From NCBI RefSeq assembly GCF_003664585.1, contig NZ_RCHI01000007.1, positions 62,001 through 126,000 of the forward strand: 64,000 bases of DNA. The letters run 5' to 3'. Position 1 is the stretch's first letter. The number at the start of each line of letters is the position of its first letter. This DNA is from Paenirhodobacter hankyongi (GTDB taxonomy: Bacteria > Pseudomonadota > Alphaproteobacteria > Rhodobacterales > Rhodobacteraceae). The position numbers and the translations under genes were made by a program. Shown here piece by piece: positions 15,950 through 60,808 of the stretch. The notes beneath the pieces are model-generated. The model saw only the letters and a list, made by a program, of their open reading frames with translations, did no database searches and was not told the DNA's origin.

Positions 15950-15986
15950 GGGCGTGGCAGGGGACTGCCGCGCCCGTTTGTTTTCT
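15950..15986 (+). terminator. Intrinsic terminator of the SulP gene
   Basis: GGGCGTGGCAG (15950-15960) and CTGCCGCGCCC (15965-15975) pair with one mismatch around a GGGA loop, followed by GTTTGTTTTCT. It lies 28 bp after the SulP stop codon and insulates the acs promoter region. Confidence 0.75.
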
Positions 15987-16004
15987 GCGCTGCGGCATGG
16001 CGAC

Positions 16005-16170
16005 GCTGCGTTGCGGCTTTTCAGACGTGACGTCAGATCGCGACTCCGTGAACAGACAAGCGGTTGAAACAAAATGTCTATTTCTGGTCACTTTTCGTCA
16101 CATTTACAAACTTACCGTATGCGCTGTGAAGTAATTTACAGAAAAATTCAATTATCATGAGGGCTTAACG
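16005..16170 (+). promoter_or_regulatory. acs upstream regulatory region
   Basis: The 356-bp gap before acs, the only gap over 300 bp, holds the SulP terminator and then this probable control region. GCTGCGTTGCGGC (16005-16017) is one base from the GCTGCGTTGCAGC palindrome found elsewhere in the window. TCACTTTT and TCACATTT form a direct repeat (16088-16105). AATTTACAG (16133-16141) recurs as its complement upstream of the ScfR-family gene. From about 16065 to 16170 the DNA is strikingly AT-rich for this genome. No clear -35/-10 pair could be chosen. Confidence 0.45.
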
Positions 16171-16277
16171 GAAAGGGGCGTTCTGGTTTACAGTGGTCGC
16201 GGGTAGAACGCCTGCGGCCTCGGCTGTGGGCAGAGGGTGCGGCCGCAGGGCCGCTCGATTTCCAGGGAGGATTGGCT

Positions 16278-18248
16278 ATGGCCGCTCAGGAACAGGCTGT
16301 CGTTGCGCCGGAGATGCGGGACATTCCGCCGGGCTTTGAGAACGCTCACGCGAACACGCAGAAATACCGCGAGATGTATCGCGAATCGGTCGAGAATCCC
16401 GATGCCTTCTGGGGCCGCGAGGGCAAACGCCTCGACTGGATGACCCCCTATACCAAGGTCAAGAACACCGATTTCACCTTCGGCAAGGTCTCGATCAAGT
16501 GGTTCGAGGATGGCGTTCTGAACGCCTCGGTGAACTGCATCGACCGCCACCTGAAGGATCGCGCGCTGCAGACCGCGATCATCTTCGAGCCCGATGATCC
16601 GAACGAACCTGCCGAGCACATCACCTACAAGGAGCTGTCCGAGAAGGTGAACCGGATGGCGAACGTGCTGCTCAGCCAGGGCATCATGCGCGGCGACCGC
16701 GTCGTCATCTACCTGCCGATGATCCCGGAAGCGGCCTATGCGATGCTCGCCTGTGCCCGCATCGGCGCGATCCATTCGATCGTCTTCGCCGGCTTCTCGC
16801 CCGACGCGCTCGCGAACCGCATCAACGACTGCGGTGCGAAGCTGGTCATCACCGCCGACAGCGCCCCGCGCGGCGGCCGCAAGACCCCGCTCAAGGCCAA
16901 TACCGACGCGGCGCTGCTGCACTGCTCGGACAAGGTGCGCTGCCTCGTCGTCAAGCGCACCGGCGACCAGATCTCCTGGGTGCAGGGCCGCGACGTCGAC
17001 CTTCTCTATCTGATGGATCACGTCTCGCCCGACTGCCCGCCGCGGCCGATGAACGCGGAAGATCCGCTCTTCATCCTCTACACCTCGGGCTCGACCGGCA
17101 AGCCGAAGGGCGTCGTGCACAGCACCGGCGGCTATCTCGTCTATGCCTCGATGACGCATCAGTACACCTTCGACTATCACGACGGCGACGTGTTCTGGTG
17201 CACCGCGGACGTGGGCTGGGTCACCGGCCACAGCTACATCGTCTATGGTCCGCTGGCGAATGGCGCGACCACGGTGATGTTCGAGGGCGTGCCGACCTAT
17301 CCCGACGCCGGCCGGTTCTGGGCGGTGTGCGAGAAGCACAAGGTCAACCAGTTCTACACCGCGCCGACGGCGATCCGCTCGCTGATGGGGCAGGGCACCG
17401 AATGGGTCGACAAGTACGACCTCAGCTCGATCAAGGTCCTGGGCTCGGTCGGCGAGCCGATCAACCCCGAGGCCTGGGTCTGGTATGACCAGCACATCGG
17501 CAAGGGCCGCTGCCCCATCGTCGACACCTTCTGGCAGACCGAGACCGGCGGCCACATGCTGACCCCGCTGCCGGGCGCGACGCCGACGAAGCCCGGCTCG
17601 GCCACCAACCCGTTCTTCGGGGTGAAGCCGGTGGTTCTGGATCCGCAGACCGCGGTGCGCATCGGCGAGACCGAATGCGAGGGCGTGCTGTGCATCTCGG
17701 ACAGCTGGCCGGGCCAGATGCGCACCCTCTGGGGCGATCACGAACGCTTCCAGGAGGCCTATTTCGCCCAGTATCGCGGCTATTACTTCACCGGCGACGG
17801 CTGCCGGCGCGACAAGGACGGCTATTACTGGATCACCGGCCGCGTCGATGACGTGATCAACGTCTCGGGGCACCGCATGGGCACGGCGGAAGTCGAGTCG
17901 GCGCTGGTGGCGCATCCGGCGGTGGCCGAGGCCGCGGTCGTGGGCTACCCGCACGAGCTCAAGGGCCAGGGCATCTACGCCTATGTCACCCTGATGAACG
18001 ATCAGGAGCCCTCGGACGCGCTGCGCAAGGAGCTCGAGAAGTGGGTCCGCACCGAGATCGGCCCGATCGCCAAGCCCGACCTGATCCAGTGGGCGCCCGG
18101 CCTGCCGAAGACCCGCTCGGGCAAGATCATGCGCCGCATCCTGCGCAAGATCGCCGAGAACGACTATGGCAGCCTTGGCGACATCTCGACGCTCGCGGAC
18201 CCCTCGGTGGTTCAGGAGCTGATCGACAACCGCATGAACCGGGGCTGA
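16278..18248 (+). CDS. acs: Acetyl-CoA synthetase (AMP-forming)
   Basis: A 656-aa cytoplasmic enzyme that activates acetate to acetyl-CoA with ATP, releasing AMP and pyrophosphate. Seen: P-loop-like motif [11 protein letters not shown], the aromatic substrate pocket in [22 protein letters not shown], the hinge [15 protein letters not shown] and the C-terminal catalytic Lys in [13 protein letters not shown], the residue known to be acetylated in this family. Full length. The start ATG follows GGGAGG by seven bases. adk follows after 3 bp, a pairing that makes sense because adenylate kinase removes the AMP. yjcH-actP lie downstream. Confidence 0.97.
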
Positions 18249-18251
18249 GGC

Positions 18252-18941
18252 ATGGCAGAGACCGAAAACACTGTCGAGACCACCGCCGCGGTGCTGATCC
18301 TGCTGGGCCCGCCCGGCGCAGGCAAGGGCACGCAGGCGCGGATGCTGGAAGAGCGCTTCGGCCTGGTCCAGCTGTCGACCGGCGATCTGCTGCGCGCCGC
18401 CGTCGCCCAGGGCACGCCCGCGGGGCTCGCCGCCAAGGCGGTGATGGAAGCGGGCGGGCTCGTCTCGGACGAGATCGTGCTGGCCATCCTCAAGGACCGC
18501 ATGGCCGAGCCCGACGTGGCGAAGGGCGTGATCCTTGACGGCTTTCCCCGCACCGCGGGGCAGGCCGAGGCGCTCGATACGCTTCTGGCCGATGCCGGCC
18601 AGAAGGTCACCGCAGCGGTGAGCCTCGAGGTCGACGACGAGGCGATGATCGCCCGCGTCGCCGGCCGCTACACCTGCGCAAGCTGTGGCGAGGGCTATCA
18701 TGACGCCTTCAAGCAGCCCGCGGTGGCCGGGGTCTGTGACAAATGCGGCGGCACGGAGTTCAAGCGCCGGGCCGACGACACTGCCGAAACCGCGCGTGCC
18801 CGGCTGCAGGCCTATCACGCGCAGACGGCGCCGCTGATCGCCCATTACCGGGCGCTTGGCGTCCTCGAGGAGATCGACGCGATGGGCTCCATCGACGAGA
18901 TCGCCGCGGGGCTCGGGTCGATCGTCGAGCGCGTCGCGTGA
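18252..18941 (+). CDS. adk: Adenylate kinase, zinc-LID type
   Basis: 229 aa. Converts AMP plus ATP to two ADP. The N-terminal extension (about 12 residues) precedes strand and P-loop LLGPPGAGKGTQ; the AMP site includes STGDLLRAAV and LDGFPRTAGQAEA. The LID carries four cysteines in two CxxC pairs (CASC and CDKC), a structural zinc site. Translationally close to acs (3 bp gap). A second adk may exist in the ribosomal-protein operon, as in many bacteria, so this copy could be dedicated to acetate activation; that is inference. Confidence 0.95.
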   Translation: MAETENTVETTAAVLILLGPPGAGKGTQARMLEERFGLVQLSTGDLLRAAVAQGTPAGLAAKAVMEAGGLVSDEIVLAILKDRMAEPDVAKGVILDGFPRTAGQAEALDTLLADAGQKVTAAVSLEVDDEAMIARVAGRYTCASCGEGYHDAFKQPAVAGVCDKCGGTEFKRRADDTAETARARLQAYHAQTAPLIAHYRALGVLEEIDAMGSIDEIAAGLGSIVERVA

Positions 18942-18949
18942 CGAGAGCT

Positions 18950-19060
18950 GGCGCCTCCGCCTGGACGGAGGCGCCGGGACCACGGCTTCCGCCGGCACTG
19001 GACCGGCGGCGGCGCTGATCTGAAACGGTCTGTCAACGATGCGCGAAAGGGGCTTTCGCG
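18950..19060 (+). other. Three tandem perfect stem-loops between adk and yjcH
   Basis: Stem 1: GGCGCCTCCG/CGGAGGCGCC, 10 bp, loop 6 (18950-18975). Stem 2: CCGCCGG/CCGGCGG, 7 bp, loop 7 (18989-19009). Stem 3: CGCGAAAG/CTTTCGCG, 8 bp, loop 3 (19042-19060). None is followed by a T-tract, so they are not classical terminators. They may stabilise the acs-adk mRNA, set differential expression of yjcH-actP, or act in a leader. Confidence 0.6.
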
Positions 19061-19147
19061 TGCAGGATCGGCTTGTCCCGGCGTCGGGGCGGTCGAGGGG
19101 GCCTGCATCCCGCGCGCATCGCGTTCATCAAGGAGGAGGGAAACACA

Positions 19148-19456
19148 ATGCAAGACACGATGCTGCAACGCATCGCAAACAGCCCGACCTACAAGGAGTT
19201 GCGCAGCAAGCGCCTCCGCTTCGGCTGGATGCTCACCATCCTGGTGCTGGTCGTCTATTACGGCTTCATCACCCTGATCGCCTTCCGCAAGGACATCCTG
19301 GCCACGCCGATCGGCGATGGCGTGATGTCCTGGGGCATTCCCGCCGGTTTCGGCGTGATCGTCTTCACCATCGTCGTCACGGCGATCTACGTCTTCCGCG
19401 CGAATGGCGAATACGACGAAATGACCGAGCAGGTGAAGCGCGAGGTGCTGAAATGA
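19148..19456 (+). CDS. yjcH: DUF485 (YjcH) inner-membrane protein
   Basis: 102 aa with two membrane segments (about 29-49 and 61-83) between charged ends, opening with the family-typical [17 protein letters not shown]485/YjcH is regularly encoded just before the acetate symporter ActP and is thought to assist it. The AAGGAGGAGG ribosome site is very strong. The stop overlaps the actP start (ATGA), so the two are translationally coupled. Confidence 0.93.
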
Positions 19457-21186
19457 ACCGACTGACCCAGGCCGGCCGGTCCCTCGGCCTCGCCGCCCTC
19501 ATGCTGATGCCGGGCGCCGTCTTCGCGGCAGGCACCCTCGAGGGCGAGATCAAGCAGCAGCCCACGAACTGGACCGCGATCGGGATGTTCGCCGTCTTCG
19601 TGGTGATGACGCTGTTCATCACCAAGTGGGCGGCCGCGAAAACCAAGTCGGCGGCCGATTTCTACACCGCCGGCGGTGGCATCACCGGCTTCCAGAACGG
19701 GCTGGCGATCGCCGGTGACTACATGTCGGCGGCCTCCTTCCTCGGGATCTCGGCGGCGGTGATGACCTCGGGCTTCGACGGGCTGATCTATTCGATCGGC
19801 TTCCTCGTCGGCTGGCCGATCCTGACCTTCCTGATGGCCGAACGGCTGCGCAACCTCGGCAAGTTCACCTTCGCCGACGTGGCGGCCTTCCGCTTCGCCC
19901 AGACCCCGGTGCGCGTCTTCGCCGCGCTCTCGACCCTCGTCGTCGTGGCCTTCTACCTGATCGCGCAGATGGTCGGCGCGGGCCAGCTCATCAAGCTGCT
20001 GTTCGGCCTCGACTACCATTATGCCGTGATCATCGTCGGCGCGCTGATGATGGTCTATGTGCTCTTCGGCGGCATGACCGCCACTACCTGGGTGCAGATC
20101 ATCAAGGCCTGCCTCCTGCTTGGCGGCGCGAGCTTCATGGCCTTCATGGTGATGTCGCACTTCGGCTTCAGCTTCGAGGGCCTGTTCGCGGAATCGGTGA
20201 AGGTCAAGTCCGAGCTGGCCGGCGCGGCCGGCAAGACCCCGGAAGAGGCGGCCAAGGCCGGTCTCTCGATCATGGGGCCGGGCAGCTTCGTGAAGGATCC
20301 GATCTCGGCGATCAGCTTCGGCATGGCGCTGATGTTCGGCACCGCCGGTCTGCCGCACATCCTGATGCGCTTCTTCACCGTTCCCTCGGCCAAGGAAGCG
20401 CGCAAGTCGGTGATGTGGGCGACCGTCTGGATCGGCTACTTCTACCTGCTGACCTTCATCATCGGCTTCGGCGCGATCGTCTTCGTGCTGACCAACCCCG
20501 ACTTCCTCGAGCTGAAGGACGGCGTGAGCGGTCTCATCGGCGGCAACAACATGGCGGCCGTCCATCTGGCCCATGCGGTCGGCGGCAACATCTTCCTCGG
20601 CTTCATCTCGGCCGTGGCCTTCGCCACGATCCTTGCGGTGGTCGCGGGCCTGACGCTCTCGGGCGCCTCGGCGGTGTCGCATGACCTCTATTCGACGGTG
20701 TTCAAGAAGGGCAAGGCCGACAGCGCCTCGGAGCTGAAGGTCTCGCGCATCACCACTATCGCGCTCGGCATCGTCGCGGTCATCCTCGGCATCGCCTTCG
20801 AGAAGCAGAACATCGCCTTCATGGTGTCCCTGGCCTTCGCGATCGCGGCCTCGGCGAACTTCCCGGTGCTGTTCCTGTCGCTGCTGTGGAAGGGCATGAC
20901 GACCCGCGGTGCGGTGATCGGCGGTCTGATCGGTCTCGTCTCCTCGGTGACGCTGACCGTGATCTCGCCCTCGGTGTGGGAAGCCACGCTCGGCCATGCC
21001 AAGGGCTCGGCGCCGTTCCCCTACACCTCGCCCGCGCTGTTCTCGATGGTGCTTGCCTTCGTCGGCGTCTGGTTCTTCTCGATCACCGACAAGAGCCGCC
21101 GCGCGGAAGAGGACAAGGCCGGCTATCTGGCGCAGCAGGTGCGCTCGGAAACCGGCATCGGTGCCGCCGAAGCTTCGGCACACTGA
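19453..21186 (+). CDS. actP: Acetate/cation symporter
   Basis: 577-aa sodium:solute symporter family (SLC5-like) carrier that imports acetate and related short acids. A cleavable-looking signal ([17 protein letters not shown]) precedes about 13 membrane segments, including [21 protein letters not shown] and [14 protein letters not shown], both hallmark SSS sequences. Residues around [20 protein letters not shown] form the ActP-specific periplasmic loop. The genes around it (acs, yjcH, DUF294 protein) repeat the arrangement I recall from Pseudomonas and other proteobacteria. Confidence 0.95.
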
Positions 21187-21201
21187 TCCCGCCTGCATCC
21201 C

Positions 21202-21226
21202 GGCCTGCCCCTGACGGGGGCAGGCC
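21202..21226 (+). other. Strong intercistronic hairpin after actP
   Basis: GGCCTGCCCC and GGGGCAGGCC are perfect 10-bp arms with a 5-nt loop, 16 bp after the actP stop and before the ribosome site of the DUF294 gene. With no T-tract it more likely protects the upstream mRNA or attenuates than terminates. Confidence 0.55.
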
Positions 21227-21244
21227 ACCCCGGGGAGGAAAGTC

Positions 21245-23071
21245 ATGGACGCCGAAATCAAGGCCATCACCGCGTTTCTGGAAAGCGTCCATCCCTATGA
21301 TACCCTGCCGCGTGACGAGCTGGCGTCTGTCGCCGGTTCCTTCCGCCGCATGGTCTTTCGCGCGAATTCGCTGATCTACGTGCATGACGCGCCGATCGGC
21401 GGGCTCTACCTGATCAAGCAGGGCGGGGTCGAGATCACCGACGGCAACGGCGCGCTAGTCTCGCTGCTCGGCCCGCGCAACTCGTTCGGCGAGCGCGGGC
21501 TGATGCGCGGCGGCATCGCCGTGACCCAGGCCCGCGCGACCGAGGATGCGATCATCCTCGTGCTGCCGGCGCCCACCTTCACCCGGCTGATCCGGACCTA
21601 TCCGGCCTTCGAACGCTTCTTCAACCGCCGCCGCGGTGATCGGCCCGGGGCGGATCTGGCCACGCAGAAAGTGGCCGACCTGATCGCCCGTCGCCCGCTT
21701 GCCTGCGGCCCCGGGGCCACGGTGACCGAGGCTGCGCAGATGATGCGCGACGCGCAGGTCTCCTCGCTCGGCGTCACCGGCGCGGACGGGCAGCTGCTCG
21801 GCCTCGTCACCGTGCGCGACCTGTCGAACAAGGTGCTGGCCGAGGGGCGCGACCCGGCGACCCCGGTGAGCGAGGTGATGAGCGCCGATCCGGTCTCGCT
21901 GCCGCCCACCGCACTGGGCTCGGACATCCTGCACATCATGCTCGAGCGCCGCATCGGCCATCTGCCGATCACCGAGGAGGGGCGCTTCGTCGGCATGATC
22001 ACCCAGACCGACCTGACCCGGTTCCAGGCGGTCAGCTCGGCGGTGCTGATCCGCGACGTGGTCTCCTCGGTCACGGTCGAGGAGATGGCGGCGGTGACCG
22101 CCCGCATCCCGCAGCTGCTGGTGCAGCTCGTCGGCAGCCACCAAAGCCACGAGGTGGTGACCCGCCTCGTCACGGACATCGCCGATGCCGTCACCCGCCG
22201 CCTGCTGGCGATGGCCGAGGCCACGCTCGGCCCGCCGCCGGTGCCCTATCTGTGGCTGGCCTGCGGCAGCCAGGGCCGGCAGGAGCAGACCGGCGTCAGC
22301 GATCAGGACAATTGCCTGATCCATGACGACAGCGCGACCGAGGAGGACAGTGCCTATTTCGCCGCCCTTGCGAAGATCGTCTCGGACGGGCTGAACGCCT
22401 GCGGCTATGTCTATTGCCCGGGCGAGATGATGGCCACCACCCCGCGCTGGTGCGCGCCGCTGCAGCGCTGGCGCGCCTATTTCCGCAGTTGGCTCGACAC
22501 CCCAGACCCCGAGGCGCAGATGCTCGCCTCGGTGATGTTCGACCTGCGCCCGATCGGCGGCACGGCCCCGGGCCTGTTCCAGGCGCTGCAGGCCGAGACG
22601 CTGGAGCTTGCGGCACAGAACCCGATCTTCATCGCGCATCTGGTGTCGAACAGTCTCAAGCACACGCCGCCGCTCGGAATGCTGCGCGGCATCGCCACCA
22701 TCCGCTCGGGCGAGCACCGCAACCACATCGACCTCAAGCATAATGGCGTGGTGCCGGTGACCGATCTGGCGCGGGTGCATGCGCTGCGCGGGCGGGTCAC
22801 GGCGGCCAATACCCGCGCCCGGCTGCTCGGGGCGGAGGCGGCCGGGGTGATCTCGGCCGGCGATGCGCGCGACATGATCGAGGCCTATGACCTGATCGCG
22901 ACGGTGCGGCTGGAAAATCAGGCCCACCTGATCCGCGCCGGCCGCAAGCCTGACAATTACCTCGCCCCCTCGGACCTGAGCGACCTCGAACGCTCGCATC
23001 TGCGCGACGCCTTCGTGGTGGTGCGCACGATGCAATCGGCGATCGCCCATGCCCGGCCGGCGATCGGTTGA
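21245..23071 (+). CDS. cNMP-binding/CBS/DUF294 nucleotidyltransferase-like protein
   Basis: 608 aa, cytoplasmic. Domain order: cyclic-nucleotide-binding-like domain (about 15-125, FGERGLMRGG being the phosphate-cassette-like turn), two CBS domains (about 145-265, VSSLGVTGADGQLLGLVTVRDL and RIGHLPITEEGRFVGMIT), then DUF294 nucleotidyltransferase-like region (GSQGRQEQTGVSDQDN, a GS-x-D-x-D type active site) and its C-terminal helical DUF294_C domain. Such proteins sit next to actP in several proteobacteria and resemble GlnD-type regulators. It may sense adenylates and modify a target protein; the target is unknown. AGGAGG-like ribosome site GGGGAGG. Confidence 0.9.
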   Translation: MDAEIKAITAFLESVHPYDTLPRDELASVAGSFRRMVFRANSLIYVHDAPIGGLYLIKQGGVEITDGNGALVSLLGPRNSFGERGLMRGGIAVTQARATEDAIILVLPAPTFTRLIRTYPAFERFFNRRRGDRPGADLATQKVADLIARRPLACGPGATVTEAAQMMRDAQVSSLGVTGADGQLLGLVTVRDLSNKVLAEGRDPATPVSEVMSADPVSLPPTALGSDILHIMLERRIGHLPITEEGRFVGMITQTDLTRFQAVSSAVLIRDVVSSVTVEEMAAVTARIPQLLVQLVGSHQSHEVVTRLVTDIADAVTRRLLAMAEATLGPPPVPYLWLACGSQGRQEQTGVSDQDNCLIHDDSATEEDSAYFAALAKIVSDGLNACGYVYCPGEMMATTPRWCAPLQRWRAYFRSWLDTPDPEAQMLASVMFDLRPIGGTAPGLFQALQAETLELAAQNPIFIAHLVSNSLKHTPPLGMLRGIATIRSGEHRNHIDLKHNGVVPVTDLARVHALRGRVTAANTRARLLGAEAAGVISAGDARDMIEAYDLIATVRLENQAHLIRAGRKPDNYLAPSDLSDLERSHLRDAFVVVRTMQSAIAHARPAIG

Positions 23072-23084
23072 GGAGGACGAACCC

Positions 23085-23480
23085 ATGGCGGACGGAGCGC
23101 GCAAGCCGCGTGTGCTGATCATCGAGGACGAGGACAATATCGCGCTCGCGCTCGATTTCCTGATGAGCCGCGAGGGGTTCGAGCCGGCCCGTCTCGCCAC
23201 CGGGGCGGGGGCGATCGAGCGGATCCGGCGCGAGCATCCCGATCTGGTGCTTCTTGACGTGATGCTGCCCGATGTCTCGGGCTACGAGATCTGTCAGGAG
23301 GTGCGGGCCGACGCGGATCTCGCCGATGTCCGGATCCTGCTGATGACGGCGCGGGGATCGGCCCTTGAGCGGCGCAAGGGGCTTGCGCTCGGGGCCGATG
23401 GATTCATCGCAAAGCCATTTGAAATCAATGAGCTGCGCGTCGAAGTTCAGAGGCTTCTCGGGGCGGGGGACGGGGGATGA
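23085..23480 (+). CDS. Single-domain response regulator (receiver only)
   Basis: 131 aa, a lone REC domain: acidic pocket IIEDED, phospho-acceptor Asp58 in LLDVMLPDVSG, Thr in LLMTARG and Lys in IAKPFE are all present. It has no DNA-binding or enzymatic output, so it should signal by protein contact. Its stop overlaps the start of the exonuclease-kinase-like gene (ATGA), so the pair is co-translated. The same REC-only type recurs at 57392 beside the symporter-fused kinase. Confidence 0.92.
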   Translation: MADGARKPRVLIIEDEDNIALALDFLMSREGFEPARLATGAGAIERIRREHPDLVLLDVMLPDVSGYEICQEVRADADLADVRILLMTARGSALERRKGLALGADGFIAKPFEINELRVEVQRLLGAGDGG

Positions 23481-25558
23481 CGCTGTCCCGGCTCAGTCTG
23501 CGGCTGCGGGTCTTCCTGTTCTTTGCGGCGCTCGCGGCCGGGGGGCTCGCGGCGCTTGCCATCGGTGGCGGCGTCGCGCTGCGCGGGCTGTCCGATCCTG
23601 CCGCGGCCGCGGCGATCATCCGCGGCGGGGCGGTGGCGGCGGCCGTCCTCGTCGCGCTGCTCGTGCTGGTCGGCGCGCTCTTCGACCGCCACCTTGCCCG
23701 CCCGATCGAGCGCCTTGCGGGCGGCATCCGCGCCCGCACCGATGCCGAGATTGTCGCCGGGATCGATGCCGGCGCGGGGCGCTATCTCGGCGATCTCGCC
23801 CCCGCCGCGGCCGCGGTCACCGCCCGCCTCGCCGAGACCCGCTCGGCGCTGGCCGAGGCGGTGCAGCGCGAGACGACGCGGCTTGCGCAGGAAAAGGACC
23901 GGCTCGAGGCGCTTCTGTCCGACGTGCCGGTGGGGGTGCTCCTGTGCACGGCGGATCATCAGCTGGTCTTCTACAACGGCCAGGCGGTCGATCTGCTGGG
24001 CGGGGCCCATGCGCCGGGGCTCGACCGGCGCGTCTTCGATTATCTCGACGGCGCGCCGCTCGCCCATGCCCGCGAGCGGCTGCTGGCGACCGAGGACCCG
24101 GATGCGGCCTCGGACCTGCTCTGCGCGACGGTCGCCGACGGGCGGGTGCTGGCGGCGCGGATGCGGCTCCTGGCCGAGTCGGCGGATCACAGCCGCGCGG
24201 GCTATGTGCTGACGCTGCGCGATGTCTCGGCCGACCTGGCTGCGCATGCCCGGCGCGAGCAGCTGATCGACGAGCTCTTCGACCGCGTCCGCCGCCCCGC
24301 AGCCGCGGTGCAATCGCTGATCGGCCTGCTGGCCGAGGAGGCCGGTCCGACCGGGGCCGAGCGCGACCGGGTGCGGCTTGCGGCGCTCGAGGCTGCGGGC
24401 ACGCTCGGCCGGGCGATCCACGCGCTTTCGGCGCGCCACGAGGCGAGCCGTGCCGACTGGTGGCCGCTCGCGCTTGTGCGCGCCTCGGACCTGGGCGAGG
24501 CGGTGCGGGTGCGGGTCGCGGCGGCCGGTGGCACGCTGCTGCCGGTCGCGGCGCCGCTTCTGCTGCGCTGCGAGGGGTTCGAGATGGTGGCGCTGCTCGC
24601 CGATCTGGCCGCCCATCTCTCCGACCGCGACGCGCTGCGGCTCGAGATCACCGAGGAGGGCGCGGGGGCGCTGGTCGCGCTCGAATGGGCGGGCGCGCCG
24701 GTCTCGGTGAGCGCGCTCGAGGCCTGGCTCGAGGCCCCGCTGCACGGTGTGGCCGAGGTCACCGGGAGGCGGGTGCTGGCGACGCATGCAAGCGAGATCT
24801 GGCCCGAGCGGCTGCCCGACGGCCGGGCGCGGCTGTGCCTGCCGCTGCGCGAGGCGCGCCGGGCGCTTGCCCGCCCCGTGCCGGTGCCGCGCAAGGTGGT
24901 CTATGATTTCGACCTGCTCACCCGTGCACGCGAGGCCGAGGTGGCGCAGACCCCGCTTGATGCGCTGACCTGCGTCGTCTTCGACACCGAGACGACCGGC
25001 CTCCTGCCGGCCGAGGGCGACGAGATCGTGCAGATCGCCGCGGTGCGGATCCTCAACGGCCGCCGGGTCGAGGGCGAGGTCTTCGACACGCTGGTGAACC
25101 CGGGCCGCCCGATCCCGGCCGCCTCGACCGCGGTGCATGGCATCACCGATGCGATGGTGGCCGACGCGCCCCCGGTCGCCGAGGTGCTGCGCCGCTTCCA
25201 CCGCTTTGCCGAGGGCGCGGTTCTGGTCGCCCACAACGCCCCTTTCGACATGGACTTCCTGCGCCGCAAGGAATTCGTCGCGGGGCGGCTGTTCGACCAT
25301 CCGGTGCTGGACACGGTGCTGCTTTCGGCGGTGGTGTTCGGCGCGCATGAGCCGCACAGTCTCGATGCGCTGACCCATCGGCTCGGCATCACCATCCCCG
25401 AGGAGGCGCGCCACACCGCGCTTGGCGACACGGTGGCGACGGCGGAGGCCTTTCTCAAGCTCTTGCCGGCGCTGAAGGCGCGCGGGCTCGTCACCTTCGG
25501 CGAGGTGGTGGCCGAGGTGCGCAAGCACGGCCGGCTGCTGCGCGACCTGAACGGCTGA
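23477..25558 (+). CDS. Membrane PAS / degenerate histidine-kinase protein fused to DnaQ-type 3'-5' exonuclease
   Basis: 693 aa. Two membrane helices (about 12-37 and 48-69), a HAMP-like linker, a PAS domain (about 141-255), and a region laid out like a histidine kinase, 256-460. The H-box, normally HELRTP, reads DRVRRP (269-274), so the phospho-His is Asp; the Asn box and Gly boxes are not recognisable. Residues 497-670 form a DEDDh exonuclease: ExoI FDTETTG (Asp503, Glu505), ExoII NAPFD (Asp591), ExoIII His646/Asp651. The nuclease looks active, the kinase dead. Related exonucleases lie near actP in Pseudomonas (recalled). Substrate and role are unknown. Confidence 0.9.
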   Translation: MTLSRLSLRLRVFLFFAALAAGGLAALAIGGGVALRGLSDPAAAAAIIRGGAVAAAVLVALLVLVGALFDRHLARPIERLAGGIRARTDAEIVAGIDAGAGRYLGDLAPAAAAVTARLAETRSALAEAVQRETTRLAQEKDRLEALLSDVPVGVLLCTADHQLVFYNGQAVDLLGGAHAPGLDRRVFDYLDGAPLAHARERLLATEDPDAASDLLCATVADGRVLAARMRLLAESADHSRAGYVLTLRDVSADLAAHARREQLIDELFDRVRRPAAAVQSLIGLLAEEAGPTGAERDRVRLAALEAAGTLGRAIHALSARHEASRADWWPLALVRASDLGEAVRVRVAAAGGTLLPVAAPLLLRCEGFEMVALLADLAAHLSDRDALRLEITEEGAGALVALEWAGAPVSVSALEAWLEAPLHGVAEVTGRRVLATHASEIWPERLPDGRARLCLPLREARRALARPVPVPRKVVYDFDLLTRAREAEVAQTPLDALTCVVFDTETTGLLPAEGDEIVQIAAVRILNGRRVEGEVFDTLVNPGRPIPAASTAVHGITDAMVADAPPVAEVLRRFHRFAEGAVLVAHNAPFDMDFLRRKEFVAGRLFDHPVLDTVLLSAVVFGAHEPHSLDALTHRLGITIPEEARHTALGDTVATAEAFLKLLPALKARGLVTFGEVVAEVRKHGRLLRDLNG

Positions 25559-25592
25559 GGGGCGCTGCCCCTCTTTCCCTGCGGGAAATTCA

Positions 25593-25621
25593 CCCCGAGG
25601 TATTTGGGCCAAGATGAAAGC
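25593..25621 (+). repeat. Dispersed intergenic repeat, copy 1
   Basis: Copy of the element whose 25-nt core runs GAGGTATTT, then GGGCC or a variant, then AAGATGAAAGC (core 25597-25621). It lies between the convergent exonuclease-kinase and arsC-like genes, with GC-rich inverted-repeat DNA on both sides. The core is identical to copy 3 and differs at two bases from copy 2. Confidence 0.85.
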
Positions 25622-25704
25622 AGGGGCCGTGGCGCTTGCGTTTTTTCCGGGTGCAGATCCTCCGGGGGAGGCCGCAAGGCCGGGGGGCAGCGCCCCCCGC
25701 GCGC

Positions 25705-26046
25705 TCACAGGATGTCGAGCACCGCTTCCGGCGGGCGCCCGATCCGCGCGGCGCGGTCGGTGAGGACAAGCGGGCGTTCGATCAGCCGCGGATGGGCGGC
25801 GAGCGCGTCGAGGATCTCGGCCTCGGGCGCGGCCTTCGTCAGCCCGGCGGGCACATCGGCCTCTTTCCAGCGCAGAAGATCCGCCGCCGGGCGGCCGAGT
25901 TTTGCCAGTGCCGCGGCGAGTTCCGCGCGGGAGGGCGCGTCTTCGAGATAGAGCCGCACCGCGGGCGCAAACCCGCGGGCCAGCAGCAGAGCGAGCGTCT
26001 CGCGCGATTTCGAGCAGCGCGGGTTGTGCCAGATCGTCAGAGCCAT
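25705..26046 (-). CDS. ArsC/Spx-family (thioredoxin-fold) reductase
   Basis: 113 aa. Opens [16 protein letters not shown], with the single active Cys of glutaredoxin-linked arsenate reductases (HNPxCSKS) and later the [17 protein letters not shown] segment carrying the Arg used for oxyanion binding. It should reduce arsenate to arsenite with glutathione/glutaredoxin, although family members without an ars operon often have another or unknown role. No arsB/acr3 or arsR is nearby. Its start overlaps the end of pyrD by 10 bp, suggesting co-transcription. Confidence 0.88.
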
Positions 26047-27095
26047 GCGCCCCTCCCGGTGCCGACCGCCTCGGCGACCGAGGCGAAGCCGTCGCGGGCC
26101 AGAAGTGCGTCGAGGCCGCGGGCGATCTCGGGCACGAGCGACAGCCCGGCATAGACCATCGCCGAATAGACCTGCACCGCGCTCGCGCCGGCGCGGATCT
26201 TCTCGTAGGCCTGTTCGGCCGAGCCGATGCCGCCGACGCCGACGAGCGGCAGCCGGCCTTGCGTCAGCTGCGACAGGCGGGCGAGCACGCGGGTCGATTT
26301 CTCGAAGAGCGGCGCGCCCGACAGCCCGCCCGGCGCATCGGCCTGCGGGCTTGTCAGCCCCTCGCGCGACAGCGTCGTGTTCGTCGCGATGATGCCGTCG
26401 ATGCCGGAAGTGAGCGCCACCTCGGCGATTTCCTCGAGCTCGGCGGGGGTAAGATCGGGGGCGATCTTCAGGAAGACGGGGATGCGGCGCTCGAGCTCGC
26501 CCCGCGCCGCGACGACGCCTTTCAGAAGGGCGCCCAGCGCCTCCTTGCCCTGCAGCTCGCGCAGCTTCTCGGTGTTGGGCGAGCTCACGTTCACCGTGGC
26601 GAAGTCGAGATGCGGGCCCGCGGTGCGCAGCACGGTGGCGAAATCGGCGGCGCGGTCGGCGCTGTCCTTGTTCGCGCCGAGGTTGAGGCCCACCGGAATC
26701 CCCGCCGGGCGCGCGGCGAGGCGGGCGGCGATCGCCTCCATCCCCTCGTTGTTGAAGCCGAAGCGGTTGATGACGGCGCGGTCCTCGGTCAGCCGCCACA
26801 GCCGGGGCTTGGGGTTGCCGGGCTGCGGGCGCGGGGTGGCGGCGCCGACCTCGAGAAAGCCGAAGCCCGCGCGCATCAGCTGCGGCAGGGCGACGGCGTT
26901 CTTGTCGAAGCCCGCGGCCAGCCCCACCGGATTGGGCAGTTTCAGCCCGGCGAGATCGGTGGCAAGTCGGGCGCAGTGCACCGGGCCCGGCAGCGGTGCC
27001 AGCCCCGCGCGCAGCGCCATCAGCGACAGCCCATGCGCGGTTTCCGGATCGAAGCGGTGCATCAGCGCAAGGCCCGTGCGTTCGACGAAATTCAC
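26037..27095 (-). CDS. pyrD: Dihydroorotate dehydrogenase (quinone), class 2
   Basis: 352 aa. Oxidises dihydroorotate to orotate in pyrimidine synthesis and passes electrons to quinone at the membrane. Seen: N-terminal membrane-associating helix, [15 protein letters not shown], the FMN-site [10 protein letters not shown], the catalytic Ser of class 2 enzymes in [13 protein letters not shown], and [17 protein letters not shown]. The start is GTG at 27095, overlapping the stop of DUF952 (GTGA), so DUF952-pyrD-arsC form one coupled unit. Confidence 0.95.
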
Positions 27096-27430
27096 AGCAG
27101 CACCTCGGGGAAGATATGGCCGGAGACGCCGAGCGGCAGGGAGGTGTCCCAGGCGACATCGGCAAGGGTGAGCGGGCGATAGAGATGCGGGAAGAGCGCG
27201 CCGCCGCGCGAGGGCTCCCATTTCAGCGCCGTGCCGAGCGGCTCGGCCGCGACCGCCACGAGGACGAGGTCGCTCTCCGTGGCGAAATGTTTCGCGGCGG
27301 TCTCGACGACCTGGGCGGAGGTCGAGAAATGGATGAACCCGTCGGCAAGGTCGACGGGGGCACCGGCGGTCTCGCCCGCGGCGCGGAAGGCATCCCATTC
27401 GGGGCGGCGGAAGATCTTGTAAATCAGCAT
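27092..27430 (-). CDS. DUF952 family protein
   Basis: 112 aa, matching DUF952 by [18 protein letters not shown], the [20 protein letters not shown] motif with conserved His, and [16 protein letters not shown]952 proteins resemble glutathione-S-transferase-associated small proteins of unknown function; the conserved HFS and HLYRPL His residues could be catalytic. Translationally coupled to pyrD. Confidence 0.87.
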
Positions 27431-27488
27431 GTCCTCTCATGCCCTCGGGCCGCGGGCCGGTCAATCCCGCGCAGCGCCGCAGGCCGGA

Positions 27489-27506
27489 CTGTCACGCGGC
27501 TGTCAG
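27489..27506 (+). promoter_or_regulatory. PHO box (PhoB operator) before the 5'-nucleotidase gene
   Basis: CTGTCAC (27489-27495) and CTGTCAG (27500-27506) are direct repeats with 11-bp period and a 4-bp spacer, the exact layout of the PhoB consensus (two CTGTCA units). The site is 96 bp upstream of the start of an exported phosphatase, the kind of gene normally in the Pho regulon. Confidence 0.8.
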
Positions 27507-27601
27507 CTGGCCAAAACAGGCTGATCCGCGTCAACGGCTTTGACTCGCAGGACCGTGTGACGCCACAGTAACGCCCATGTGACATTGTCCCGGAGGTTTT
27601 C

Positions 27602-29170
27602 ATGAACGCCCGTCTTCTTGCCACGGTCGCCGCGCTTGCGCTCAGCGCGGGCACCGCGCAGGCCGAGTATACGCTGCACATCCTGCACACCAACGACCTG
27701 CACAGCCGCATCGAATCGATCAACAAATACGATTCCACCTGCAGCACCGAGGAGGAGGGCGAGGGCAAGTGCTTTGGCGGCATCGCACGGGTGGCGGCGA
27801 AGGTGGCCGAGATGCGCGCCGAGCTCGCCGGTCAGAACGTGCTGCTTCTCGATGCGGGCGACCAGTTCCAGGGCTCGCTGTTCTACACCACCTACAAGGG
27901 CAAGGACACGGCCGGGTTCATGAACGCGATCGGCTATCAGGCGATGGCAGTCGGCAACCACGAATTCGACGACGGCCCGGCGCAGCTGGCGGCTTTCACC
28001 GGCAGCATCGGGTTTCCGATGGTGTCGGGCAATCTCGATCTCAGCCGCTCGGACGAGCTGAAGGGCAAGATCCACAAGACGCTGGTGCTCGATGTCGGCG
28101 GCGAGAAGGTGGGGATCGTCTCGGCGCTGGCCGTCGACACGCCCGAGACCTCCTCGCCCGGGCCGAACGTGATCTTCCACGACGAGGCCGAGAGCCTGAA
28201 GGCGGATGTCGCGGCCCTTGAAGCCGAGGGGGTGACGAAGATCGTGGCGCTGACCCACACCGGCTTCGTCAAGGACAAGGCGCTCGCGGCCGCGGTGCCC
28301 GGCATCGACGCGATCGTCGGCGGCCACAGCCACACGCTCTTTGGCCCGGGCGGCGAGGCCTATCCGACGATGGTCGGCAATGTGCCGGTGGTCTCGGCCT
28401 ATGCCTATTCGAAATATCTGGGCCATCTGGTGCTGACCTTCGACGACGCGGGCACCCTGACCGCCGCCTCGGGCGAGCCGATCCTGCTCGATGCTTCGGT
28501 GGTGCCCGATCCGAAGGTCGCGGCCGAGGTGGCCGAGATGGCCAAGCCCCTCGAGGAAGTGCGCGCCAAGGTGGTGGCCGAGGCCGCGGCCGAGATCGAC
28601 GGCAGCCGTGACAGCTGCCGGGTGAAGGAATGCGAGATGGGCGACCTGATCGCCGAGGCGATGCTCGACCGGGTGAGGGATCAGGGCGTGACGATCGCGA
28701 TCCAGAACGGCGGCGGCGTGCGCGCCTCGATCGACGCCGGGCCGGTGACGATGGGCGAGGTGCTGACCGTGCTGCCGTTCCAGAACACGCTGTCGACCTT
28801 CGAGGCGAAGGGATCGACGATCCGCGCGGCGCTGGAAAACGGGCTGAGCCAGGTCGAGGAGGGGGCGGGCCGCTTCCCGCAGGTCGCCGGGCTGAAATAC
28901 ACGTGGAGTGCCGAGAAGCCCGCGGGCAGCCGGCTGCTGTCGGTCGAGGTCGCGCAGGACGGGGGCTGGGTGCCGCTTGATCCCGAGACGGTCTATGGCG
29001 TGGTGACGAACAACTATGTCCGCAACGGCGGCGACGGGTTCAAGATGTTCGCGGCCGAGGGCATGAAGGCCTATGACTTCGGCCCGGATCTGGCCGATGT
29101 GACGGCGGAATATCTTGCGAAAGTCGGCCCTTACACGCCGAAGCTCGACGGGCGCATCACGCAGGAATGA
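27602..29170 (+). CDS. Exported 5'-nucleotidase / metallophosphatase
   Basis: 522 aa periplasmic enzyme of the UshA/5'-nucleotidase family. Signal peptide MNARLLATVAALALSAGTAQA. N-terminal metallophosphatase motifs: LHTNDLHSR (metal Asp/His), DAGDQFQGS, AVGNHEFDD, VGGHSHT. The C-terminal substrate domain has NGGGVRASIDAG and NNYVRNGGDGF, the adenine-stacking and loop motifs. It should hydrolyse nucleotides to nucleoside and phosphate outside the cytoplasm, feeding phosphate and nucleobases, which suits the purine and pyrimidine catabolic genes in the window. A PHO box lies upstream. Confidence 0.93.
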   Translation: MNARLLATVAALALSAGTAQAEYTLHILHTNDLHSRIESINKYDSTCSTEEEGEGKCFGGIARVAAKVAEMRAELAGQNVLLLDAGDQFQGSLFYTTYKGKDTAGFMNAIGYQAMAVGNHEFDDGPAQLAAFTGSIGFPMVSGNLDLSRSDELKGKIHKTLVLDVGGEKVGIVSALAVDTPETSSPGPNVIFHDEAESLKADVAALEAEGVTKIVALTHTGFVKDKALAAAVPGIDAIVGGHSHTLFGPGGEAYPTMVGNVPVVSAYAYSKYLGHLVLTFDDAGTLTAASGEPILLDASVVPDPKVAAEVAEMAKPLEEVRAKVVAEAAAEIDGSRDSCRVKECEMGDLIAEAMLDRVRDQGVTIAIQNGGGVRASIDAGPVTMGEVLTVLPFQNTLSTFEAKGSTIRAALENGLSQVEEGAGRFPQVAGLKYTWSAEKPAGSRLLSVEVAQDGGWVPLDPETVYGVVTNNYVRNGGDGFKMFAAEGMKAYDFGPDLADVTAEYLAKVGPYTPKLDGRITQE

Positions 29171-58120: not shown

Positions 58121-60808
58121 ATGCCCTTCGACAGTCTCGTCGCGGTCAGCCTCGGTTACGTCATCATCCTGTTCACCGTGGCCTTCGTGGCCGAGCGGCG
58201 GGCGCGGCTTGGCCGGCTGCGGTTCCTGCGCAGCCCCTGGGTCTACACCCTGTCGCTGTCGATCTATTGCACCGCCTGGACCTTCTATGGCGCGGTGGGC
58301 TATGCGGCGCGCTCGGGGCTTGAGTTCGCCACCATCTACCTTGGCCCGACGCTGGTTTTCGTCGGCTGGTGGGCGCTCCTGCGCAAGCTGGTGCGGATCG
58401 GTCGGGTGCAACGGGTGACCTCGATCGCCGACCTGATCTCGAGCCGCTACGGCAAGTCGAACCTGCTCGGCGTCATCGTCACGCTGATGTCGGTCGCCGC
58501 CGCCACCCCCTATATCGCGCTGCAGCTGCAGTCGGTGACGCTGAGCTTCGGCGTCTTTGCCGCCGACCCGCACGAGGGCTGGCCGATGCCCGATCAGGGC
58601 TCGACCGCGTTCTGGATCGCGGCGGGGCTGGCGCTCTTCACCATCCTCTTCGGCACCCGCAACCTCGATGCGAACGAACGTCACCACGGCGTCGTCATGG
58701 CGATCGCGCTCGAGGCGGTGGTCAAGCTGCTGGCGCTGGTCGCGGTCGGGGTCTTCGTCGTCTGGGGCATCGCCGGCGGGCCCGCCGATGTGCTTGCCCG
58801 CATCGAGGCCTCGCCGATTGCCGGCTGGGATCTGCACCCGGGCCGCTTTGCCGGGCTGACCTTCGTCTCGGCCGCGGCGGTGCTGACCCTGCCGCGGATG
58901 TTTCAGGTGCTGGTGGTCGAGAATGTCGAGGAACGCCATCTGGCCACCGCGAGCTGGGCCTTCCCGGCCTATCTGATGCTGATGAGCCTTTTCGTCGTGC
59001 CGATCGCCGTGCTCGGGCTCGAGCGGCTGCCGGCGGGGGCGAACCCCGACCTCTTCGTGCTGACCCTGCCGCTGGCCGAGGGGCAGGGGCGGCTGGCGCT
59101 CCTTGCCTTCCTCGGCGGGTTCTCCTCGGCCACCTCGATGGTGATCGTGGCGGCGATCGCGCTCGCCACGATGGTCTCGAACCACATCGTCACGCCGCTG
59201 TGGCTGGCGCTGCGCGCCGGGCGGGCGCAACAGGGCGACGTGCGCGGCCTCGTGCTGATCAGCCGGCGGCTCTCGATCGGCGCGGTGCTGGCGATGGGGT
59301 ATTTCTACTACCAGCTGTCAGGCGGCACCGAGGCGCTGGCCGAGATCGGGTTGATCGCCTTCGTCGGCACTGCGCAGGTGCTGCCGGCGCTGATCGGCGG
59401 CATCTTCTGGCGCGGCGCGACGCGTCTTGGCGCGATGGTCGGGCTGGTGAGCGGTTTCGCGATCTGGCTTTACGCGCTGTTCCTGCCCTCCTTCGGCGGC
59501 GGCGGGCTGATGTCGGCGGGGCTGCTGGCGGAGGGGCCCTTCGGCATCTCCTGGCTGCGGCCGCAGGCGCTCTTCGGGCTCGAGGGGCTCGACCCGCTGC
59601 TGCATGCGCTGTTCTGGTCGCTGCTCGTCAACACACTCGCCTTCCTCGTCTTCTCGATGACCAGCTTCCCGGGACCGATGGAGCGGTTGCAGGGTGTGGC
59701 CTTCGTCAATGTCTTCGATCAGGGCCAGGGCGCGCGCAGCTGGTCGCGCGGCCAGGCCGAGGCCGAGGATCTGCTCAGCATGGCGCAGCGCATCCTGGGT
59801 GCCGAGGAGGCGCAGCACTTCTTCCAGACCCGGGCGGCGGCACAGGGCAAGGCCGGCTTCCTGCCCGACCCGACGCCCGAGTTCCTGGCGCGGCTCGAGC
59901 GTCAGCTGGCGGGCTCGGTCGGCGCGGCGACGGCGCATGCGATGATTGCGCAGCTCATTGGCGGCGCCTCGGTCAGCGTGCAGGACCTGATCGCCGTCGC
60001 GGGCGAGGCCGCCGACATCAAGGAATATTCGGCCCGCCTCGAGGCGAAGTCGGAAGAGCTTGCCCGCACCGCGCGCGCGCTGCGCGAGGCGAACGAGAAG
60101 CTGACCTCGCTGTCGGTGCAGAAGGACGCCTTCCTCGGCCAGATCAGCCACGAGCTGCGCACGCCGATGACCTCGATCCGCGCCTTTTCCGAGATCCTGA
60201 TGGAGCCCGACCTGCCCGAGGCGCTGCGTGCGCAATATGCCGAGATCATCCACGAGGAGGCGCGGCGGCTCACCCGGCTGCTCGACGACCTGCTCGACCT
60301 GTCGGTTCTGGAACACGGCAAGGCGCAGCTCACGGTCTCGGTCGCGAACCTGCACGACCTGATCGACCGCGCCGTCTCTGCCGCCTCGAACACCCGGCCC
60401 GAGCGCGACTTCCGCCTGGAACGCGACACCCCGGCCGAGCACATGCCGATCTTCACCGACACCGACCGGCTGGTGCAGGTGTTCATCAACATCATCTCGA
60501 ACGCTCGCAAATATTGCGACGCCGAACGGGCGGTGCTGCGCATCGAGGTGAAGCGGCGCGGCCAGAAGGCGCAGATCGACTTCATCGACAACGGCTCGGG
60601 CATCCCGAAGGCCAGCCAGGCGCTGATCTTCGAGAAATTCGCCCGCCTCACCGACACCTCGAAGGCCGGGGGCGCGGGGCTGGGGCTCGCGATCTGCCGC
60701 GAGATCATGGCCAATCTGGGCGGCAGCATCGACTATCTGCCGGGGCAGGGGGGCGCCGCCTTCCGGGTCACGCTGCCATTGCGCCGGCGTGAAGGCGAGG
60801 CCGCCTGA
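58121..60808 (+). CDS. Sodium:solute symporter-fused sensor histidine kinase (CrbS-like)
   Basis: 895 aa. Residues 1 to about 540 are a 13-segment SSS/SLC5 domain (SIYCTAWTFYGAVGYAARSGLEF, FLGGFSSATSMVIVA), a linker and coiled coil (to about 660), then a complete kinase core: H-box ISHELRTPMTSI with His677, Asn box FINIISNARKY, DNGSGIPKASQALIFEKF and GGAGLGLAICREIM. CrbS kinases of this build control acs in gammaproteobacteria. Here the partner is the REC-only protein at 57392. Probably senses an organic acid or its transport. Confidence 0.95.
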   Translation: MPFDSLVAVSLGYVIILFTVAFVAERRARLGRLRFLRSPWVYTLSLSIYCTAWTFYGAVGYAARSGLEFATIYLGPTLVFVGWWALLRKLVRIGRVQRVTSIADLISSRYGKSNLLGVIVTLMSVAAATPYIALQLQSVTLSFGVFAADPHEGWPMPDQGSTAFWIAAGLALFTILFGTRNLDANERHHGVVMAIALEAVVKLLALVAVGVFVVWGIAGGPADVLARIEASPIAGWDLHPGRFAGLTFVSAAAVLTLPRMFQVLVVENVEERHLATASWAFPAYLMLMSLFVVPIAVLGLERLPAGANPDLFVLTLPLAEGQGRLALLAFLGGFSSATSMVIVAAIALATMVSNHIVTPLWLALRAGRAQQGDVRGLVLISRRLSIGAVLAMGYFYYQLSGGTEALAEIGLIAFVGTAQVLPALIGGIFWRGATRLGAMVGLVSGFAIWLYALFLPSFGGGGLMSAGLLAEGPFGISWLRPQALFGLEGLDPLLHALFWSLLVNTLAFLVFSMTSFPGPMERLQGVAFVNVFDQGQGARSWSRGQAEAEDLLSMAQRILGAEEAQHFFQTRAAAQGKAGFLPDPTPEFLARLERQLAGSVGAATAHAMIAQLIGGASVSVQDLIAVAGEAADIKEYSARLEAKSEELARTARALREANEKLTSLSVQKDAFLGQISHELRTPMTSIRAFSEILMEPDLPEALRAQYAEIIHEEARRLTRLLDDLLDLSVLEHGKAQLTVSVANLHDLIDRAVSAASNTRPERDFRLERDTPAEHMPIFTDTDRLVQVFINIISNARKYCDAERAVLRIEVKRRGQKAQIDFIDNGSGIPKASQALIFEKFARLTDTSKAGGAGLGLAICREIMANLGGSIDYLPGQGGAAFRVTLPLRRREGEAA

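What the first reader, a model, noticed from the sequence alone, without database searches (positions are those of the whole stretch)
23477..25558. Pseudo-histidine kinase fused to an apparently active DEDDh exonuclease
All five exonuclease residues are present (D503, E505, D591, H646, D651), but the H-box His is Asp and ATP-binding boxes have decayed. The receiver gene overlaps its start. A membrane PAS sensor controlling a nuclease, with a receiver as a likely switch, would be a new type of signal output: degradation of a nucleic acid or small nucleotide (for example a linear dinucleotide such as pGpG or pApA) in response to a ligand.
Basis: partly seen in the sequence, partly recalled or inferred. 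Interest (0 to 1): 0.8.

Follow-up and report, generated by a model that had tools for sequence, protein, structure and literature searches.

The report
Pseudokinase-gated exonuclease in acetate-uptake loci
A bacterial membrane protein joins a permanently disabled signalling kinase to a DNA/RNA-trimming type of enzyme, and the genes around it suggest that a normal sensor and a small messenger protein switch this enzyme while the cell takes up acetate-like food.

Summary
ORF 23477-25558 (693 aa) is two TM helices, a PAS-like domain, a histidine-kinase-like core and a DEDDh exonuclease domain with all five catalytic residues. The core is not decaying: in 93 aligned rows (window included) the H-box His is never His (Asp/Glu in 85), N-box Asn is absent in 93, and the G1 Asp is Trp in 91: a constrained pseudokinase. 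Best model: SLC5 kinase -> receiver~P -> docking on the pseudokinase (DivL/DivK logic) -> exonuclease, acting with or against the nucleotidyltransferase to set organic-acid use. Substrate unknown; a dinucleotide has no special support.

The parts
23477..25558 (+). TM2-PAS-pseudoHK-DEDDh exonuclease, 693 aa
23498..23746 (+). Membrane anchor: helices 8-36 and 41-90 (hydropathy peaks 12-30 and 51-69), short connecting loop
   Evidence: AF2 secondary structure; hydropathy
23900..24226 (+). PAS-like domain, residues about 142-250
   Evidence: PAS_4 E 5e-4, below cut-off; model strands
24227..24460 (+). Pseudo-DHp helical hairpin, residues 251-328; D269 at the place of the H-box His, R272 at +3
   Evidence: R272 kept in 67 of the 73 rows with a residue there, 8 gaps
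24470..24862 (+). Pseudo-CA (HATPase-like) domain, residues 332-462; N-box Asn lost, G1 Asp is W404
24974..25453 (+). DEDDh exonuclease domain, RNase_T residues 500-659
   Evidence: Foldseek epsilon 2gui TMt 0.84, PolC exonuclease 2p1j 40% identity
23085..23480 (+). Stand-alone receiver (ORF from 23049; start at 23085 read from the translation); phospho-Asp, Thr and Lys present; overlaps the exonuclease start by 4 bases
   Evidence: Response_reg E 4.9e-24; residues
21245..23071 (+). cNMP-CBS-CBS-DUF294-DUF294_C nucleotidyltransferase-like protein with GSQGRxE..SDQD motif
   Evidence: motif in 134 of 137 related ORFs
19039..21186 (+). ActP cation/acetate symporter (probable start about 19453)
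   Evidence: NCBIfam PRK09395.1 946 bits, cut-off 750; start from reading
18252..18941 (+). Adenylate kinase
16272..18248 (+). Acetyl-CoA synthetase
   Evidence: AMP-binding and ACAS_N
58121..60808 (+). SLC5-type sensor histidine kinase with HisKA and HATPase_c (ORF from 58028), homologue of the kinases that flank the receiver/exonuclease pair in other lineages; candidate kinase of the receiver
   Evidence: A5 profile E 1.4e-290; HisKA 5e-18, HATPase_c 9e-24; N-termini of 11 homologues align to SSF symporters, prob 96.4

Best explanation
It is the output of a two-component system that acts through a nuclease instead of a DNA-binding domain. An SLC5-type sensor kinase (here at 58121-60808) senses organic-acid flux and phosphorylates the stand-alone receiver. 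The phosphorylated receiver docks on the pseudo-DHp hairpin of the membrane-anchored exonuclease, as DivK~P docks on the pseudokinase DivL, and together with the PAS domain sets the activity of the DEDDh phosphodiesterase. That enzyme works in one circuit with the CBS-DUF294 nucleotidyltransferase to control acetate/pyruvate-type uptake and use. Shown by sequence: the parts, their conservation, adjacency and natural fusions. Inferred: phosphotransfer, docking, direction of control, substrate.
For: Catalytic DEDDh residues kept in 152 of 156 domains while kinase residues are replaced in a fixed way in 93 rows. Receiver within 300 bp in 80 of 89 rows with intact pseudo-HK and 1 of 44 without; of 7 rows with a truncated pseudo-HK (matches begin at model position 33-50, so the H-box helix is missing or unrecognisable) 6 lack the receiver. 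Receivers keep the phospho-Asp (80 of 81) and Lys (81 of 81). Full-length SLC5-HK on the same strand within 900 bp in 34 of 140 loci, and a homologue in the window; the pseudo-HK profile aligns with these kinases. DUF294 (E <= 1e-20) fused or within 6 kb in 117 of 140; five single-ORF fusions; 51 of 51 family genomes carry DUF294 against 145 of 398 overall. Deletion of the P. putida exonuclease PP_0353, in an operon with CBS protein PP_0354 whose promoter is bound by ErdR of the CrbS/R-type system, impairs growth on pyruvate (PMC9927547). DivL-DivK~P precedent (PMC4211667).
Against: No biochemistry. On the exonuclease tree the receiver/pseudo-HK association leaves only 3 independent pairs on supported branches (same direction in 1.8 on average, opposite 0.0; median sign-test p 0.5), so shared descent could explain the counts. 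Nine intact pseudo-HK rows away from contig edges have no receiver within 300 bp. L079 and L080 keep receiver and SLC5-HK but have no pseudo-HK. In the window's family the SLC5-HK is not adjacent and occurs also in relatives without the pseudo-HK exonuclease (38 of 61 genomes carry it), so it must have other outputs. 23 of 140 loci have no DUF294 at E <= 1e-20 within 6 kb, some of them on contigs long enough to show it. Neither PP_0353 nor PP_0354 deletion affected growth on acetate (PMC9927547).
Confidence: 0.55

Rival explanations
1. Writer/eraser pair (a sharper form of the best model): DUF294 attaches a nucleotide to a target (symporter subunit or regulator), as GlnD does to PII, and the DEDDh enzyme removes it as 5'-NMP, because a nucleotidylated tyrosine with a free 3'-OH resembles the 3' end of a nucleic acid. 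Receiver and PAS control the eraser; CBS/cNMP domains control the writer.
For: Five RNase_T-CBS-CBS-DUF294-DUF294_C fusions in one ORF, the layout of a writer and eraser in one chain. Nucleotidyltransferase motif in 134 of 137 ORFs, exonuclease residues in 152 of 156. In P. putida loss of the exonuclease but not of the CBS protein impairs growth on pyruvate (PMC9927547), as expected if the writer inhibits and the eraser relieves. DUF294_C is grouped with the GlnD/GlnE C-terminal domains (PMC3710099 passages). Snake venom phosphodiesterase removes AMP from a tyrosine of GlnK (PMC3612183 passages).
Against: No modified target known. No DEDDh enzyme is known to me to act on a nucleotidylated protein (recalled). 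The solved exonuclease relatives in the 50 rows shown act on DNA or RNA. The missing CBS phenotype may only mean wrong conditions; a CBS-protein mutant of P. fluorescens also lacked a phenotype (PMC5715377 passages).
Confidence: 0.25
2. The enzyme is a membrane-tethered 3'-5' exoribonuclease that trims selected mRNAs (transporter, TCA or glyoxylate genes) when the receiver is phosphorylated; DUF294 may add nucleotides to RNA 3' ends.
For: The authors of PMC9927547 speculate on mRNA decay for PP_0353. Fold matches include RNase T and PolC/DnaQ exonucleases. A nucleotidyltransferase beside an exonuclease is also the layout of 3'-end turnover.
Against: No RNA-binding domain in the Pfam scan; no Rfam match at gathering threshold in 15000-28000; DUF294 resembles GlnD, which acts on protein.
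Confidence: 0.3
3. One reading: the enzyme degrades a linear dinucleotide (pGpG, pApA).
For: DEDDh enzymes such as oligoribonuclease do this (recalled).
Against: Best NCBIfam hits are PolC/DnaQ/DinG-type exonucleases and no oligoribonuclease model is among the 25 shown of 35; exonuclease hits in the 50 Foldseek rows shown are epsilon, PolC, DnaQ-like, DinG, ExoX and RNase T. Cyclic-dinucleotide enzymes were not looked for among the neighbours.
Confidence: 0.07
4. A decaying fusion without regulated function: the kinase core is a relic that keeps the exonuclease at the membrane.
For: The core is missing or truncated in many relatives that still carry PAS or TM plus exonuclease.
Against: Fixed replacements (acid in 85 of 93, Trp in 91 of 93), confident fold, and the receiver next door.
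Confidence: 0.12

Closest known systems
DivL/DivK of Caulobacter (PMC4211667)
   Same: PAS plus kinase core without His that senses a stand-alone receiver; the H+3 Arg (R553 in DivL, R272 here) is kept; DivL 4q20 is among the Foldseek hits (rank 39)
   Different: DivL acts on the kinase CckA (abstract in listing); here an exonuclease is fused in cis; D/E replaces His instead of Tyr
CrbS/R (MxtR/ErdR) and RpuS/R SLC5-STAC two-component systems
   Same: SLC5-type sensor kinase, acetate/pyruvate setting, CBS protein plus exonuclease operon as target in P. putida
   Different: CrbS is a hybrid kinase with LuxR-type CrbR; here the kinase ORF has no receiver and the receiver has no DNA-binding domain
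PP_0354/PP_0353 operon of P. putida (PMC9927547)
   Same: CBS protein followed by an RNase_T protein, linked to organic-acid use
DnaQ epsilon / PolC exonuclease domain
   Same: Fold and DEDDh residues; 33-40% identity
   Different: Below the epsilon cut-off (111.9 vs 222.7 bits); the genome has a separate 236-aa DnaQ-like ORF
GlnD (nucleotidyltransferase plus removal activity, sensor domains)
   Same: Nucleotidyltransferase of a related group, sensor domains, a possible removal partner
   Different: GlnD removes UMP with an HD domain (recalled); here it would be a DEDDh enzyme, usually a separate protein

Membership tests
DEDDh exonuclease (RNase_T, PF00929) | RNase_T domain over cut-off with the D-E-D-D-h residues | tested here: met
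   133.2 bits vs 24; five residues present
DEDDh exonuclease (RNase_T, PF00929) | Two-metal 3'-5' phosphodiesterase activity | not testable with these tools
   needs purified protein
Histidine kinase (HisKA/HATPase_c) | Phospho-acceptor His in the H-box | tested here: not met
   D269; 0 His in 93 rows
Histidine kinase (HisKA/HATPase_c) | N-box Asn and G1 Asp for ATP/Mg | tested here: not met
   Asn 0 of 93 at either N-box site, G1 Asp 0 of 93
Histidine kinase (HisKA/HATPase_c) | DHp hairpin plus CA fold | tested here: met
   hhalign prob 99.0; AF2; Foldseek HK hits; no Pfam kinase hit
DivL-like pseudokinase that reads a receiver | Lost His, kept receiver-docking features, partner stand-alone receiver | tested here: inconclusive
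   His lost, R272 kept in 67 of 73, receiver adjacent; binding not tested
DnaQ epsilon subunit of Pol III | Equivalog score for proteobacterial epsilon | tested here: not met
   TIGR01406 111.9 bits vs 222.7
Oligoribonuclease / nano-RNase | Match to an oligoribonuclease family model | tested here: inconclusive
   none among the 25 shown of 35 NCBIfam hits
CrbS-type SLC5 sensor kinase (window 58121-60808) | SLC5 domain joined to HisKA-HATPase_c | tested here: met
   SSF profile match prob 96.4 made with 11 homologues; Pfam gives no SSF hit for the window ORF
CrbS-type SLC5 sensor kinase (window 58121-60808) | C-terminal receiver as in CrbS | tested here: not met
   926-aa ORF ends after HATPase_c; no Response_reg listed
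GlnD-like nucleotidyltransferase (DUF294) | GSxGRxE..DxD motif | tested here: met
   read; 134 of 137 ORFs

The most novel reading that the evidence does not exclude
A membrane-bound, receiver-gated DEDDh enzyme is the eraser of a protein nucleotidylation written by CBS-DUF294, so that a two-component system controls organic-acid uptake through a GlnD-like write/erase cycle run by an exonuclease fold. The pseudokinase is a dedicated receiver dock derived from a kinase core like that of the partner kinase.
Probability: 0.22. Interest if true: 0.92.

Novelty: new variant of a known kind. Interest (0 to 1): 0.74.

Why it matters
Two-component outputs known to me are DNA or RNA binding, second-messenger enzymes, methyl- and phosphotransfer (recalled). 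A receiver that switches a nuclease by docking on a fused pseudokinase would be a new output; the exonuclease family occurs in 51 of 398 sampled genomes of the phylum and in a few MAGs of other phyla. It would also give the CBS-DUF294 proteins a partner and a testable chemistry, and bear on why a putative exonuclease is needed for normal growth on pyruvate in P. putida.

Tried and rejected
Epsilon subunit: rejected, below the equivalog cut-off, and the genome has another DnaQ-like ORF. Single decayed gene: rejected. Functional kinase core in relatives: none in the 93 rows aligned. RNA element in 15000-28000: none at gathering threshold. Presence of the SLC5-HK as a marker of the pseudo-HK form inside the window's family: does not discriminate. 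Phylogenetic test of the receiver/pseudo-HK association: too few supported pairs. Acetyl phosphate as a donor remains possible: an acetate kinase gene is present, not followed. Paper searches for a kinase/nuclease fusion or a DUF294-exonuclease pair (listings only except where passages are cited) found none in the held open-access library except the P. putida work; most subscription papers are not held.

Counts and their limits: ORFs in the neighbour scripts are stop-to-stop, so lengths include upstream residues. My first count for DUF294, 119 of 140 at E <= 1e-4, included two CBS-only matches (L156, L166); at E <= 1e-20 it is 117 (107 within 2 kb, 2 fused). Rows dropped: seven rows at contig edges were set aside; these and L186 (a split gene, counted as 'none') were left out and the window added, giving 133 rows. 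The 93 rows include the window and some fragments. The 51 of 51 comparison and the count 'at least 31 of 80' were made by eye from listings; the latter lists were cut off. The 12 short-exonuclease loci fetched were chosen because the listing already showed the pair. PADLOC and PHROGs were not searched.
Full report
The gene. ORF 23477-25558 on the + strand codes for 693 aa. Its C-terminal part is an RNase_T exonuclease domain (500-659, E 1.7e-38) with D503, E505, D591, H646 and D651. Pfam sees only weak PAS matches below cut-off and no kinase domain. An AF2 model from 52 rows has mean pLDDT 88.5 and pTM 0.68: two N-terminal helices, a coil, a PAS-like domain, a helical hairpin 251-328, a CA-like fold 332-462 and the exonuclease. 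The 50 Foldseek rows shown (224 matches at E <= 0.001) include sensor kinases (WalK model 9a5d, 4i5s, DivL 4q20, the HK853-RR468 complex) and DnaQ/PolC/DinG/ExoX/RNase T exonucleases (epsilon 2gui TMt 0.84, 33% identity; PolC 2p1j 40%).

A constrained pseudokinase. A profile of residues 262-462 aligns over 197 columns with the core of intact histidine kinases found next to homologues (prob 99.0, E 4e-18) and places D269 on the phospho-acceptor His. In 93 rows with an intact kinase-like region (window included; alpha-, beta-, gamma- and deltaproteobacteria and single MAGs titled as other phyla) this column is Glu 46, Asp 39, Ser 2, and Thr, Ile, Met, Arg, Ala, Lys once each; never His. The two N-box Asn columns hold no Asn in 93 rows; the G1 Asp is Trp in 91 of 93. 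So the loss is old and the replacements are under constraint. In other relatives the module is truncated or absent while TM/PAS/exonuclease or the exonuclease alone remain.

The setting. Upstream lie acetyl-CoA synthetase, adenylate kinase, ActP, a cNMP-CBS-CBS-DUF294-DUF294_C protein and a stand-alone receiver that overlaps the exonuclease start by four bases. I fetched 60 regions from unnamed alphaproteobacterial genomes and 80 named loci and searched their ORFs with the window's proteins and an exonuclease profile. DUF294 (E <= 1e-20) is fused to the exonuclease or within 6 kb in 117 of 140 loci (within 2 kb in 107); an SSF symporter lies within 6 kb in 87 of 140. The symporter can be ActP or a VC_2705-type symporter; a DUF4212 small subunit was identified in one locus (L178). 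In a sample of 398 genomes of the phylum all 51 with the exonuclease family at E <= 1e-70 carry DUF294 at E <= 1e-20, against 145 of 398 overall (hypergeometric 5e-26; relatedness not corrected). Of 80 further genomes with DUF294 at least 31 have another DEDDh ORF beside it in the truncated listings; 12 of these were fetched and show the pair.

The receiver. It lies within 300 bp in 79 of 88 rows with an intact pseudo-HK, 1 of 7 with a truncated one and 0 of 38 with none; seven rows at contig edges were set aside. With L186 (a split gene) left out and the window added: 80 of 89 against 1 of 44. Matches of the truncated forms begin at model position 33-50, after the H-box helix; L185 has a further weak match to it. 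On a tree of 156 exonuclease domains the best tree needs 13 changes of the pseudo-HK label and 15 of the receiver label, but only 3 independent pairs rest on supported branches (receiver same way 1.8, opposite 0.0), so descent is not excluded as a cause. Receivers keep phospho-Asp in 80 of 81 and Lys in 81 of 81: they look phosphorylatable, but the pseudokinase lacks the residues to do it.

The kinase. In 8 of 10 ORFs scanned from distant loci Pfam finds HisKA and HATPase_c behind about 680 N-terminal residues (the other two, from L148 and L145, are a lyase and a deacetylase, and there a kinase of this kind lies on the other side). The N-terminal profile aligns with SSF symporters (prob 96.4), so these are SLC5-type sensor kinases, as CrbS. 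A full-length match lies within 900 bp on the same strand in 34 of 140 loci. The window's genome has one full-length homologue, inside this window at 58121-60808, with HisKA and HATPase_c, near a ScfRs-type regulator. Against a simple one-to-one link: it is also present in relatives without the pseudo-HK exonuclease (38 of 61 genomes carry it).

Literature. In P. putida the CBS protein PP_0354 and the RNase_T protein PP_0353 form an operon; ErdR of the CrbS/R-type system MxtR/ErdR binds the PP_0354 promoter. Deletion of PP_0353, not of PP_0354, impairs growth on pyruvate, as does loss of mxtR, erdR or actP-I; neither deletion affects growth on acetate (PMC9927547, sections 7 and 8 and passages; PMC8402216 passages). 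DivL, with Tyr550 at the place of the His, binds DivK~P through the receiver-docking face, and R553A disrupts it (PMC4211667 outline and one section); R272 here is the same H+3 position, Arg in 67 of the 73 rows with a residue. Snake venom phosphodiesterase, a 3'-exonuclease (recalled), removes AMP from a GlnK tyrosine (PMC3612183 passages). I found no description of a kinase-exonuclease fusion or of the DUF294-exonuclease pair as such in the searches named under Tried and rejected.

Reading. The parts and their conservation are shown; the flow is inferred: SLC5 kinase to receiver, receiver to pseudo-DHp, pseudokinase to exonuclease. For the substrate the evidence does not decide. RNA 3' ends and a nucleotidylated protein are the two main options; the fusions with a GlnD-like nucleotidyltransferase and the one-sided deletion phenotype favour trying the second first, since one double mutant tests it.

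Organism. L126 is titled Rhodobacter capsulatus DSM 1710 and its contig has the same length (411314) as contig C3 of the same-genus genome G011, so the window is probably from a Rhodobacter species; this is inference.

Noticed in passing
window 56005-60808: A ScfRs-type (short-chain fatty acyl-CoA) regulator lies just before the SLC5-type sensor kinase, about 33 kb from the exonuclease; in G006, G007, G008, G013 and G016 kinase and exonuclease are also about 31-35 kb apart on one contig.
   Followed up: partly
L051, L052, L053: The exonuclease domain follows a multi-TM protein that reads like an EamA/DMT transporter in one ORF of about 500 aa; family name from reading, not from a scan.
   Followed up: no
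L094, L096, L212, L213, L214: Single-ORF fusions of DEDDh exonuclease with CBS-CBS-DUF294-DUF294_C.
   Followed up: yes
window 19039-21186 and L106, L116: The symporter in the operon is ActP in the window and in G009 (L116) but a VC_2705-type symporter in G016 (L106); the other parts stay.
   Followed up: partly
G007:C20:615-2698 and G010:C1: G007 holds a second copy of the gene with stops; G010 holds two full-length copies.
   Followed up: no
L186: The gene is split into a pseudokinase ORF (450 aa) and an exonuclease ORF (338 aa) with the receiver still in front.
   Followed up: no
L079, L080: Receiver and SLC5 kinase sit beyond DUF294 although the exonuclease has no kinase-like module, an exception to the co-loss pattern.
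   Followed up: partly
L216, L217, L223: Short exonucleases beside DUF294 with Glu at the third acidic position (D591), in L217 also Asn at D651: perhaps altered catalysis.
   Followed up: no
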